This document shows, piece after piece, positions 51,882 through 63,800 of a stretch of 64,000 nucleotides of DNA. The notes under the pieces were generated by a model. It saw nothing but the letters and a program-made list of their open reading frames with translations, was not told the origin of the DNA and ran no database searches. This DNA is from Limnomonas spitsbergensis (lineage: Eukaryota; Chlorophyta; Chlorophyceae; Chlamydomonadales), in assembly GCA_037349105.1 (NCBI GenBank), contig JAYJMM010000036.1, positions 5,802,001-5,866,000 on the forward strand, in the 5' to 3' direction. A program made the translations under genes and the position numbers. Positions within the stretch are counted from its first letter, which is position 1. Every line of letters starts with the position of its first letter.

Positions 51882-54800
51882 ATGGATCAAGACCAGGACA
51901 TGGACGAAGGTGGAGAGAACGTGCCACTAATAGAGGCAGTCTCCGATTCTATGGAAGGTGCGATCCCTTTATCAGCACTCGCTTTTCTGGGTTGTCAGTC
52001 AGGATCTTGTTTTACTCTTGCAGCGGAGGACATACCATCCATTCAAGAAGCCTCGACTGCGATCGCCCCCAAAGTGGACAGCGAGTTTTCAGGGATTAAA
52101 GAGGTATGTGCTGTGCTGCCCCGGGAAAGTTCTTCTCCATGAGCTGACCCCTTTCTTTTGTGGCCGGCCTCTCCCACCCTCAGATACGGTTCGAGAATTT
52201 CAGCAAGTTACCGGAAAAGGAGTATTCGTCGACCTTCGAACTGGGAACTTACGTATGGTGGGTGCTACGGTTCCGTCGGGTTTTTTTACCAGTATGAAAT
52301 GAGAGTTTTCGCCCACTATCGACGATTGGATGCATGCATTGCAAAGTTTGATAGCGACTGTGACGTGGCAATCCCGGTCCTCAGTTACTAGTTTGATGCT
52401 GGTGCCCACTTACAGCATGGGGTAGGCCTGGCCTGCTCGCATGGCCAGCCCTGCTCTGCTATTTATGCATGGATAGAGAAGATATAGGCAGGAGACTTGT
52501 TGAATATCTTAGCAATGTAGGGTTTCACTCAGGCAGTGGTGGCGAGGCTATTTGTTTACAGGATTTTGCATGGGGCAGGGCCTGCATGGGTCCATTGCAG
52601 ACTTCTGTGCTTTTTGAACTTGCATCGAGCTGGTGTTCACTGGCACCAGTGTGAACACCAGCTCACAAAATAAACTCAGCTGGCAGAATGAATGTAAGCT
52701 AGTTTGTTCCTCTTGGAGAAAGGCAGCATGTTTTTCACACTGGCCGACAAAAAGCTTTTTGGGGAAGGAGCCTTAAATAAACCGGACGGATCTAACTTCA
52801 ATCTCTACTATCCGTACTCAGGCGCCTGCTTCTGTTTCCGAGGGGCGGCAGGCAGGCTGGCTCGCTATCGGTGTACTTAGATGCCCCGGAGGCGAAGGTC
52901 TTCCCCACGCCGCGTGTTAACTTCAAACTCAGCCTTGTCAACCAGTTGGACGAGAAAGTGGTCAGCAAGGGTGAGTAAGGATGGGATAGGCCCTGAACGC
53001 AAGGACAAGGAGCAGGAGGGGCACACAGCAAGGGGGAGGGGGCAAACAGCACGGTGCCAGCAGTCTTGCAAATGCTCCTCACCCTACTTCAGTTTGGTCA
53101 GTAGGTTGGGTTAGAAACAGATGGTATGCAAGTAGATAAAATAAGTCAGAAAACGCATGTCTCTCATGAGTCAAAAATGTTCTTTGAGTAGCCCTGGTTA
53201 GGGCAGATGAGGAAGCGATAGTATCCCTCAAACGCTTATAAACCTAGTTTCCCGTAAAACCTGGTATCCCTGTGCTATGGCCATGCTATTTTAGCATGCA
53301 CCCCACCGCTTTGGGGGCGGCCTGAACGCTACCATTGGGCTGATTGGGACAACACTATGAACGGCCATAGGTCCAAGTTACAGGTCTTGTTGCACTTGTT
53401 CCTCCTTTTACGAGGGTTGGGATGTAGCTGTGAGCTGCTAATGTTTAATTTTTAACTGCAGAGGCCAGCCACGTCTTTACTGGAGCTGCCTGTGACTGGG
53501 GCTTTGGCCCCTTCTTCAACATGGATGATCTCCTCAACCCTAAGAACGGATGGCTGGTTGACGACACTATCATCATCCGCGTATTCGTCCAGGTCAGCAT
53601 GGGGTATAGCGGGTTCCTAGAGCCCTGTGTTTCCTATGGTGTGTTGGGTCCTGGAATCCTGGTCTATGCTGACTAAGGCTTCATCGCCAGCTGCATTGCC
53701 GAGCACACTAGCAAAGCAGCACTTCAGGTTGGTTGTTGCTGAGTCAACACATCCACCCTTCTGCCTTTTTCGAAATGGGCTGGCAGTGCAAACTGGCATG
53801 AATATAGGAGGGACAACAGAAGGGGCAGTATAGAGCTAGAGATAAAACAGAGGGCTGAGAAGTTGGCTACAGTATCGTTGCATATTGACCGGTACCCAGG
53901 GCTGCGGCTTAGAACGGGTGACAACCCTGATTCGCGCATTTTGCGAATAGAGGGATTCACCCATTTGTATTTCGGCATGTCATTGGTTTATTTTTTTGCA
54001 GCACGTGCATTCTGTCTTTGGGTATCGGTATGATTGATTTTTTCCTTCATGGCGCGTCCACCCTGTGGCAGATGGCAGGGAATGATCGATTGATGGATTC
54101 ACTGAAAGCATCCTGTTTCCAACCTGTCTCCGGGTATCACAGGTTGAGCGGGACACGCGGTACAACCTGGAGGCACGCAAGGACACTGGCTACGTGGGTC
54201 TTAAGAACCAGGGTGCTACGTGCTACATGAATTCGCTGCTGCAGTACCTGTACCACCTGCCATTCCTCAGGACGGTGAGCGACTGAGCGCCGGGCAGGTG
54301 AAGTGGATTCAGGGTAGTGAGTTAGCTGCTGCGGTACATGTACATCCTGCCTTACCTCTTGACAGTGGGAGGCGGAGCACCCGGTGGTGTGTGAACAGTG
54401 TGTGAACAGGAACAGTCTTTTATGGTGCATGCTCACCATGGGGCAGGGGAGCACCTGCATCACCTGGACTGCTCAAGGGCGGTCAGCGATTGAGTTATCG
54501 GGTGTCCAGCATGGCCTTGGTGTGGATGAGCACAGCTGGAGTCGTTGTAGTGGATTCACTGTCGTGGATTGGCTGTAGTGGATTCGTCCTGCATATGCGA
54601 CAGGGGGTCCACAGGGAACATCTTGATATGGGTGCATTCCCGAAATAGCCGCAGCATTCTGATGGGGCATTGGCAAGACATTTTCAGTAGAATTATGATG
54701 ACACCACAGTTGTAGTGTTTGTCGAATGGTCATCCTGACGGAATGTCTTTGGAGCCCCTGAGCCCTGGATGTGGATAGCCAGGGAACCAGCCGCATTTGC

Positions 54801-60800: not shown

Positions 60801-63800
60801 TGTGGTGCAGGCGGAGAGAAGGAGTGAGAAAGTGTGGTGGGTGAGTGATTATGACCCGATTGTTAGTGACAGGGCTCAGGGCCTGGATCATGAAGTTATA
60901 AGATAAGTGGATATTCTCTCATCCATCGCCTCATCCCTTCATCCCCTCTCAACCCCTGCCCCCCCCCCTCTTATTCTTTCATCTCTCACCCACCACCCTC
61001 ACCTCTCTCGCTCTCACATCCCACCCCCACCCCCACCCCTCACACACTCCTCTCAACCGCATCCCCTCGTCCCCTTACCCTTGCACCTGTTTCAATCTCA
61101 CCCACCACCCTTACCTCTCTCGCCCTCCTATCCCCCCACCCACCCCTCACACACTCCTCTCAACCGCATCCCCTCATGCCCTTACCCTTGCACCTGTTTC
61201 AATCTCACCCACCACCCTTACCTCTCTCGCCCTCCTATCCCCCCACCCACCCCTCACACACTCCTCTCAACCGCATCCCCTCATGCCCTTACCCTTGCAC
61301 CTGTTTCAATCTCACCCACCACCCTTACCTCTCTCGCTCTCCTATCCCCCCACACCCCACCCCTCACACACTCCTTTCAAACCCATCCCCTTACCCTTAT
61401 CCCCGCATCCCCTCATCCCCTTACCCAAACCCATCCCCTTACCTCTTTCAATCTCACCTCAAGTTGTGAACTAATCAGCCTGCATTCCCCGACCAGGCGG
61501 GGAGGATGACACGCTTGCACCCACTGGGCCCAACGCCGCGACCACCAACCGGTTCGCCAAGTTCTCCAACGCCTACATGCTGGTGTACATTCGGGAGTCC
61601 GACTGGCCGCGCATCATGTGCGAGCCCAAGGAGGAGGACATTGATGCGGGGCTGAGGGGCAGGTTTGCGGTGAGAGAGCAGGGCTGGGTTGGGTACTGTG
61701 AGCTGGGAAGACATCGTTGATGCAGGGCTGCAGGTCAGGTTCTAGGGTTATAAGGTTTAGGCAGCAGGTCAGGTTTACACTGAGGAGGCGGGTAGGGCTA
61801 GTTGTTGAAGCTAGGCAGGGGAAGACGGCATTCATGCAGGTCTGAAGCAGGATCTCAAAAAACCTGGGGAGTTGAAATATACGGGGAGATGCGTGAGGCG
61901 TTGTAGCGGTCGCATCCAAGCCATCTCTTGACTTACTTCACTGCCCCAGCACTCACAATCTGTACTGATGGTTCGTATTTGTACCGATCTGGATTTCTAT
62001 CTGTTCTAAATTATAATTCTAGCTGGTCCGAAATCTCTGACTGGTTCAAAATCTGTACCGCTGCCCCCCTGCCATATAGAAAATCATGCTAAGATGGAGC
62101 AACAGGAGTTGAAGCTGCATGAACACCTGCACTGCCCCACCACTCAACATGTACCGCAGCCCCCTCGCAGCAAGAGGTACAAGTCAAGGAGGGGAGGCAA
62201 AAGGCGAGCAGCAGGCACACTTGTACCGCCCCAGCACTGAACCTGTACCGCTGCCCTGTCCCTCACAGCAAGAGCAGCAGGCCAAGGAGGAGCGGCAGAA
62301 GGCAAAGCAGTACGCACACCTGTACTGCACGATCAAGCTGGCCACAGACCAGGATCTGATGGACCAGGTGAGCTGTGGGCTGCTGGTGGGCTGTTGGCTG
62401 CTGATGGACCAGGTGGGCTGCTGGTGGGCTGTTGGCTGCTGATAAACAGTTGGGCTGCTGGTGGGCTGTTGGCTGCTGATGGACCAGGTGGGCTGATGGC
62501 TGCTGGTGGGCTGTTATCTGCTGATGGACCAGGTGAGCTGTTGGCTGCTGGTGGGCTGTGGGCTCCTGAGGAGGAGGGTGGGTGCATGGGGTGGGATGTG
62601 TTGAGAGATGTCAAATGGAGGAGAGGGGGGCATCTGGGAAACATGGTATTGAAACTTTGGAATGAGGGAACAAAGGACAGCCTCCACGAGCGGCCTTAGC
62701 GGGTGTTTTTAGTCATGGCATCGTCTACTGCGTTTGACATGACGGTCTGCTCTGTGCTTCAGGAAAATTATGGCCTGTGGGTTTCCAATGCTCCTCCGTC
62801 TTCCTCTGTTTCTACAGGTTGGCAGCACCGCTACAGAGCAGTACTGGGACCTGGTGAACCACGACCGGCTGCCTGCAGAGCACGTCTTTCGGGTCAGAAA
62901 AAATGCCCTCTTCTCAGACTTCCAGCAGGTGAGGAGAATCTGGACTTCGGATCCAGGGTTCAATATGACATAAACCCTAAGACGTTTCATATTGTTAGAC
63001 TTCCAGAGAGTGAGGGGGTGCAGAATTAGGGTGAGGGGTCTATTTCAAGCCCCGGAAATCCCTTCTTAGACTACCCACAGGCGAGGGGAATCCAGAAAAA
63101 TGCGCTGTGTTGATTTGACTTCCGAAGCTTTATAAATGTCCCTCCCAGGCTCGGAGCAGGTCAGGGGCATCTGAGACTGGGGAATAGGGTACAGTTGTTT
63201 TGAAGTCCTAGATAATTTGATCTCTATTATTTGCAGCAGGTTTCAGGAAAACTGGAATAGCTGGCATTGTAAATCTTGACACAGGTTGCCGTCGGGGTAT
63301 GGCCCACGTCAGATCACATATTTTAGGCCTGCCAGGACATCGAAGTGCTTGAATGAACAACGGCGGATTGCATTGGCATTCCATATACTGGTCCTAGCAT
63401 GATGCCGGCATATTTCCGAACATGATGCTCCTGCAAGTAGTATGTGAGGCGCCCACATGCTCCTTGCTTGTTTCTTTGATGGAGTCGCACGATCTTTGAG
63501 CATTGATGGTGGGATAACACAGTTTTCAGCCATACCCTTGAGCTCCAGTACTCCATCAGGGCACGTTCCTCTGCTTCCTGACTCATTTCTCTGAATTAGA
63601 TTCTCTCCCTTTCAACCTGAGCAGCTTGTGGCTTCAGGAATACAGTTATCAGCCATACCCTTGAGCTTTAAAACTCTGTCAGGGCACGTTCTTTGCTTCT
63701 TGAATCTTGACTTATTACTACGAATAGCATAACCTTCTTCTTTAACGTGAGCAGCTTGTGGCGGGCAACCTGTTGGTACCCGTGGAAAGGCAGCGGTTCT

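What the first reader, a model, noticed from the sequence alone, without database searches (positions are those of the whole stretch)
54220..63762. Introns of the USP7-like gene repeatedly contain echoes of adjacent exon edges, splice sites included
At least seven exon edges have nearby degenerate or tandem copies: exon 6 3' (90 bp), exon 13 5' (123 bp), exon 14 3' (two), exon 15 5' (98 bp), exon 15 3' (four), exon 16 3' (two), exon 17 5' (130 bp). Tandem duplication spanning an AG|GT-type boundary is a known route of intron creation or lengthening. Here it seems a continuing process along one gene, and several minisatellites appear to have started from such junctions.
Basis: partly seen in the sequence, partly recalled or inferred. 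Interest (0 to 1): 0.85.

Follow-up and report, generated by a model that had tools for sequence, protein, structure and literature searches.

The report
Exon-edge echoes from local tandem duplication
The introns of this green-alga-like gene do carry decayed copies of neighbouring exon edges, splice sites included, but such local duplications are about as common at non-exon places in this genome, so exon edges look like bystanders of a general habit of copying short stretches in tandem.

Summary
The gene is a USP7/UBP12-type deubiquitinase, and all seven named edges have local copies (exon 14 weakly). Of 104 edges in this gene and a paralogue, 16 carry a spanning copy, against 0.2-0.3% by chance. 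The special claim fails: intron interiors (22.8%) and evenly spaced genome windows (18.8%) carry such copies as often. Length-matched tests gave no excess for all copies in 6 of 6 settings and a marginal one for low-copy echoes in 2 of 6; one event count was marginal (20 of 34, expected 15.1, P=0.047). Arrays touch edges at the chance rate. Ages differ: the exon 28 echo predates the gene duplication, exons 6 and 13 probably do, six of 14 edges have copies in one paralogue only, and one array is almost unmutated. No intron was gained (0 of 26) and no exon length changed (27 of 27). Best explanation: pervasive local tandem duplication, filtered by selection on exons. Unexpected find, 1.9 kb past the window: 28 near-identical units, each with the exon-19 acceptor; only the last gives an open frame.

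The parts
54143..54274 (+). Exon 6 of the USP7-like gene (holds the catalytic Cys box)
54320..54404 (+). Echo of exon 6 3' edge, offset 90 bp; donor GT kept; the paralogue has an echo at the same offset
60391..60527 (+). Exon 13 (catalytic His box)
60230..60312 (+). Echo of exon 13 5' edge, 123 bp upstream; AG kept; open in frame here; in the paralogue the echo is 122 bp away, so out of frame
61650..61855 (+). Weak duplication locus at exon 14 3' edge (offset 110)
62050..62214 (+). Two echoes of exon 15 5' edge (about -190 and -98 bp); not found in the paralogue
62269..62367 (+). Exon 15
62356..62569 (+). 45-bp minisatellite that begins in the last 12 bp of exon 15; four donor-like GACCAGGTG[AG]GCTG sites including the real one
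62988..63195 (+). Three degenerate echoes of exon 16 3' edge (+81, +155, +233; scores 96, 105, 126)
63458..63762 (+). Tandem duplication locus covering the exon 17 5' edge (offset about 123-129 bp)
56503..58184 (+). Intron 8 minisatellite (CCTGACCCTCAGA type), purely intronic; intron 8 is 2185 bp here and 692 bp in the paralogue
58705..58742 (+). 12-bp tandem array that starts at the exon 10 3' edge

Best explanation
The echoes are remnants of ordinary local tandem duplication (units mostly of tens to a few hundred bp; slippage or unequal exchange is the inferred molecular step) that acts throughout the non-coding DNA sampled from this genome. Where a unit happens to straddle an exon edge, the copy left on the intron side is spliced out and decays. 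Duplications that would change the protein are removed by selection, so those whose extra copy can be discarded remain. The process is old and continuing, lengthens some introns, and now and then amplifies a splice site into a minisatellite. Shown: the copies, their rate, presence or absence in a paralogue, unchanged exon lengths. Inferred: the slippage or exchange step, the selective filter, and that the intron-side copies are not spliced in.
For: Spanning copies at 16 of 104 edges against 0.2-0.3% chance, but also at 889 of 3787 interior position-sides (684 of 3513 without A intron 8), and 18.8% of 8736 position-sides in 12 evenly spaced windows. Copy classes. Equal-length matched test: no excess for all copies in 6 of 6 settings. 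TRF arrays touching an edge: 5 of 26 (expected 5.5) and 3 of 20 (expected 3.8). Predicted exons elsewhere: 7 of 104 edges, and at a stricter cut 4 of 50 edges against 2679 of 19490 non-exon position-sides. None of 34 loci is 90% or more exonic, the highest share being 0.36. Exon lengths equal in 27 of 27, introns shared 26 of 26. Ages: exon 28 echo has 8 shared-echo sites to 0; exon 6 and 13 echoes sit at the same offset in both paralogues; a 28-copy array at exon 19 is absent from the paralogue.
Against: I expected longer visibility of edge echoes to explain this (simulation), but exon halves are less alike (344 of 445) than intron halves (499 of 599), which does not fit. Site patterns do not by themselves prove that the exon 6 and exon 13 echoes are shared by descent (2 to 2; 1 to 3 with 2 crossed). 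Intron length and array differences correlate by Pearson (0.83) but not by rank (0.22, P=0.29), so three introns carry it. The genome sample is two contigs of 124. No transcript data.
Confidence: 0.85

Rival explanations
1. Exon edges are hotspots: AG|GT-type junctions or splicing-linked DNA damage prime tandem duplication, so introns grow from their ends.
For: Marginal excess in some counts (20 of 34 loci vs 15.1; low-copy 14 vs 8.5; 2 of 6 low-copy settings). Arrays at exon 15 3' and exon 19 5' carry the splice site in their units.
Against: No excess per position, none for all copies under matched length (6 of 6), none for arrays, lower at predicted exons elsewhere.
Confidence: 0.08
2. The echoes mark introns that were themselves created by duplication of an AGGT-bearing exon segment (tandem genomic duplication model).
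For: Edge-spanning tandem copies are the kind of event that model needs; a potato gene gained an intron from a duplication across an intron-exon boundary (PMC4974935, passages).
Against: Donor and acceptor edges of the same intron are no more alike than mismatched ones (mean 47.1 vs 46.6; best of 52 is 77, the mismatched 99th percentile is 79; 3 of 52 align in register, all with scores of 53 or less, against 7.5% of mismatched pairs). No modelled intron differs between paralogues and exon lengths are equal in 27 of 27. Very old gains would be invisible to these tests.
Confidence: 0.03
3. The echoes are alternative splice sites kept for function (for example an extra 41 codons with a second His box at exon 13).
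For: The exon 13 echo keeps AG and is open and in frame for 123 nt in gene A; 12 of 16 strong echoes keep the splice dinucleotide.
Against: In the paralogue the echo is 122 nt away, so its use shifts the frame, and it lacks the His codon. The dinucleotide retention is about what overall identity predicts (my estimate, 0.8 squared, about 10 of 16). Decoys of the exon 19 array read into TGA after 19 codons.
Confidence: 0.04

Closest known systems
[quoted passage not shown] potato RdRp case PMC4974935, passages including parts of the abstract seen)
   Same: Tandem duplication carrying splice-site sequence; in the potato case the unit crosses an intron-exon boundary
   Different: Here no new intron appears between the paralogues and no donor-acceptor duplication signature is found; the copies lie in existing introns
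Minisatellites and tandem repeats in introns (comparative densities in PMC3152781; abstract, outline and section 18 part 1 of 2 seen)
   Same: Head-to-tail arrays of 12-100 bp units inside introns
   Different: Some arrays here carry a whole splice site in every unit. Tandem-repeat density in 324 kb held here is 93 kb per Mb for units up to 50 bp (TRF) against 13-29 kb per Mb listed there for three arthropods with other software, so only a rough comparison
Introner elements (PMC9860276, search listing with start of abstract only)
   Same: Change of intron content in one genome
   Different: Introners are copies inserted into many genes that make new introns; these are local copies inside existing introns

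Membership tests
Local tandem duplication / minisatellite | Copies lie close together, mostly head to tail | tested here: met
   30 of 42 duplications in 12 windows are head to tail (aligned length at least 0.8 of offset), median offset 146 bp (that detector missed known echoes, so the set is partial)
Local tandem duplication / minisatellite | Spread over non-coding DNA in general, not one site class | tested here: met
   on two contigs of 124
Local tandem duplication / minisatellite | Copies of different ages, some lineage-specific | tested here: met
   Six of 14 edges with a strong echo have no counterpart in the paralogue, five are unclear, three are at a matching place; exon 28 shared by site pattern; 28-copy array almost identical
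Tandem genomic duplication intron gain | A new intron present in one homologue and absent in the other | tested here: not met
   26 of 26 modelled introns shared by both paralogues
Tandem genomic duplication intron gain | Donor edge and acceptor edge of the intron are copies of each other | tested here: not met
   52 introns, scores as for mismatched introns
Exon-edge hotspot of duplication | Edge rate above intron interior | tested here: not met
   marginal the other way and 2 of 6 low-copy settings
USP7/UBP12 deubiquitinase (host gene) | UCH catalytic core, USP7 ICP0-binding domain, colinear with USP7 | tested here: met
   the end of a MATH domain matches below Pfam's cut-off, exons 1-4 not being in the query

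The most novel reading that the evidence does not exclude
The most novel reading left open: in this genome, tandem duplication turns splice sites into arrays of identical rival sites. The clearest case is 28 acceptors ahead of exon 19 of this gene, of which only the last yields an open frame. If the gene is still spliced correctly, the spliceosome here must choose by closeness to the downstream donor (exon definition) and pass over 27 nearly perfect upstream rivals; if not, one paralogue is being silenced by its own minisatellite.
Probability: 0.4. Interest if true: 0.6.

Novelty: new member of a known kind. Interest (0 to 1): 0.35.

Why it matters
It tests a tempting claim (exon edges as hotspots of intron growth) against controls and finds no clear support, and shows how such echoes can look special because exon edges are the part a reader can recognise. 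It also points to a natural experiment: serial, nearly identical splice sites in one of two paralogues, which would make acceptor choice testable in vivo.

Tried and rejected
Scripts that failed or misled. Searches (file layout; variable clash; blastn scoring set gave no hits), and the end (number type; its table was printed before that). Searches kept only 14 of 104 edges because the trivial self-match won; I discarded their counts and redid them. (blastn self-comparison) missed known echoes (exon 6 and 13 in gene A); its edge counts were 4 of 11 (expected 5.6) and 4 of 8 (expected 4.7), and I use it only for the head-to-tail share. The echo-to-echo identities were inflated, because its windows took in flanks that are simply orthologous; redone on the copies alone, the exon 6 and 13 echoes are not closer to each other than to their own exon, so their shared age rests on equal offsets.

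Rejected ideas. Exon 13 echo as a conserved alternative exon: frame lost in the paralogue. Longer visibility of edge echoes as the cause of the marginal excess: exon halves are less alike, not more. Selection to keep echo splice sites: 12 of 16 keep the dinucleotide, no clear excess. Naming the organism: the genome search answered once and then stayed unreachable; the best named relatives in the listing include Volvox, Coccomyxa and Haematococcus at 54-55%, so 'green alga' is an inference. Microhomology at breakpoints: 13 young two-copy cases, median 6 bp, spread -6 to 39, too few and rough to use.

Paper searches of little use: 0 papers; 1 unrelated; 5 papers, listing only, none on splice-site arrays as far as the listing shows; listings; only PMC3152781 was opened.
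Full report
What the gene is. The region 53462-63916 of the window holds exons 5-17 of a USP7/UBP12-type ubiquitin hydrolase on the + strand; the coding sequence ends about 12.1 kb beyond the window (exons 18-31, read in L003 and L004). Pfam finds the UCH core and the USP7 ICP0-binding domain above their cut-offs and the end of a MATH domain below it. The catalytic part aligns with human USP7 over residues 9-342 of a 342-residue query. The best named hits include green algae at 54-55% identity, beside many land plants at 52-54% (best 120 of 3994 listed), so the source is probably a green alga; that is an inference. 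The genome has 260 Mb in 124 contigs. Exons 1-4 and one small exon between exons 21 and 22 are not in my model.

A paralogue for dating. The same genome holds a second copy on contig C119, collinear over the modelled gene and beyond on both sides. Over 617 codons of exons 5-20 the proteins are 88.2% identical, and 65 of 235 fourfold sites differ. Its exon edges were placed by alignment to the first copy; all 27 modelled exons have the same length in both and all 26 introns between them are shared.

The observation. I scored each exon edge (45 bp on each side) against up to 400 bp of its own intron and asked for alignments that span the junction by at least 8 bp on both sides. At score 120 or more, 16 of 104 edges (52 per gene copy) have such an echo; shuffled introns give 3 of 1040 and other introns 2 of 1040. 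So the echoes are real and far beyond chance, though some single weak copies are not secure.

Are edges special? No clear sign. The same score is reached by 889 of 3787 position-sides inside these introns, or 684 of 3513 without the big array intron, and by 18.8% of 8736 position-sides in 12 evenly spaced 10-kb windows of the same two contigs, with wide spread between windows (1.8% to 47.1%). By copy class, 15.4% of edges, 22.8% of interior and 18.8% of window positions have any copy; 13.5%, 10.6% and 8.3% have one or two. With equal search length on both sides of the comparison, six settings gave P from 0.33 to 0.95 for any copy and from 0.035 to 0.79 for low-copy echoes, two of the six below 0.05. 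A first matched test without equal length gave 16 against 13.1 (P=0.18) for any copy and 14 against 8.5 (P=0.026) for low-copy; there the interior positions had shorter targets. TRF arrays touching an edge number 5 of 26 in gene A (expected 5.5) and 3 of 20 in gene B (expected 3.8). Counting whole duplication loci, 20 of 34 span an edge against 15.1 expected (P=0.047): 12 of 20 in A (expected 8.0, P=0.041) and 8 of 14 in B (expected 7.1, P=0.41). So a small excess of low-copy echoes at edges cannot be excluded; a large one is not supported. I had expected that edge echoes stay visible longer because the exon half is constrained, but the exon halves are less alike (344 of 445) than the intron halves (499 of 599), so this explanation is not borne out.

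Other genes. A small exon finder trained on this gene and its paralogue (codon use and splice sites), and checked only on them, made 52 predictions in 274.5 kb of other sequence, against 2 in Markov-shuffled sequence. Of the 104 edges of those predictions, 7 have a spanning echo at 120 or more. At a stricter cut, 4 of 50 edges have one, against 2679 of 19490 non-exon position-sides. At looser cuts, with more false predictions, 8 of 128 and 10 of 152. Edges elsewhere are thus at or below background.

Ages. Sixteen strong echoes lie at 14 edges, counting the two gene copies together. At exons 6 and 13 both paralogues have an echo at the same offset (+90 and +90; 123 and 122 bp), which speaks for one event before the gene duplication. 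The sites do not settle it: on the copies alone, patterns for a shared echo against separate origin are 2 to 2 at exon 6 and 1 to 3 (2 crossed) at exon 13, and echoes are no closer to each other than to their own exon (the higher echo-to-echo identities took in orthologous flanks). Exon 28 has 8 to 0 for a shared echo, though its own scores are modest (121 and 105). In gene A the echoes at exon 15 5' and 3', 17 5', 19 5' and 25 5', and in gene B that at exon 25 3', have no counterpart in the other copy; exons 14 3', 16 3', 17 3', 18 5' and 30 3' are unclear. With the nearly unmutated array below, the process looks old and continuing.

What it does to the gene. Introns of A are in sum 4323 bp longer than those of B, and tandem arrays differ by 3108 bp. 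The Pearson correlation over 26 introns is 0.83, resting on introns 8 and 18 (longer in A) and 20 (longer in B); the rank correlation is 0.22 (P=0.29). Lengthening is thus supported for a few introns. Intron creation is not: no modelled intron differs between the copies, and donor and acceptor edges of the same intron are no more alike than those of different introns (mean 47.1 against 46.6).

An unexpected array. In intron 18 of gene A, 1.9-3.4 kb past the end of the window (L003:1913-3368, C36:5867913-5869368), 28 units of 52 bp stand head to tail. Each holds the pyrimidine-rich stretch, the AG and the first 14 bp of exon 19; apart from one C/T site (T in 6 of 28, the real exon among them) and two bases at the start of the first unit they are identical. 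The 28th is the real exon start. In B the best match to the unit is the stretch right before exon 19, and B has no spanning echo there. Read from an upstream acceptor in the frame of exon 19, the sequence runs into TGA after 19 codons (frames printed). In the window, the 45-bp array at the exon 15 3' edge is a smaller version with four donor-like sites.

Exon 13 echo. Use of the echo acceptor in A would add 123 nt in frame with a second GNVHGGHY motif; in B the distance is 122 nt and the His codon is missing, so a shared function is unlikely.

Known kinds. Tandem duplication as a route to new introns, also across an intron-exon boundary, is in print (PMC3443670, passages; PMC4974935, passages). 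That intronic minisatellites are common is general knowledge; a density comparison with PMC3152781 is only rough because the software differs. Searches for minisatellites or arrays carrying splice sites found nothing fitting, in an open-access library only.

Verdict. Real observation, ordinary cause. The array of 28 acceptors deserves a look with transcript data.

Noticed in passing
L003:1913-3368 (C36:5867913-5869368, 1.9-3.4 kb past the window end): 28 near-identical 52-bp units, each with the exon-19 acceptor of this gene; only the last gives an open frame; no such echo in the paralogue.
   Followed up: partly
L005-L008 (C119:7733001-7773000, minus strand): Collinear paralogous segment with a second USP7-like gene and flanking conserved blocks; hints at a segmental or larger duplication.
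   Followed up: partly
window 5747-7954 +: Retroelement frame with RNase H, integrase and chromodomain matches, Ty3/gypsy-like (the class name is from general knowledge).
   Followed up: no
window 56503-58184: 1.6-kb CCTGACCCTCAGA-type minisatellite fills most of intron 8; the paralogue's intron is 692 bp.
   Followed up: partly
window about 55110-55145: Short telomere-like CTCTAAACCCTAAACCCTA stretch inside intron 6.
   Followed up: no
exon 21 donor of gene A, L003:4239-4245: Gene A appears to use a GC donor (CAG|GCAAGT) where the paralogue has GT.
   Followed up: no
L011 minus strand, predicted exon 5872-5982: Very recent 100-bp tandem duplication across a predicted donor (87 identities in an 88-bp stretch).
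   Followed up: no
window 11076-12312: 34-bp minisatellite of about 36 copies, 91% matches.
   Followed up: no
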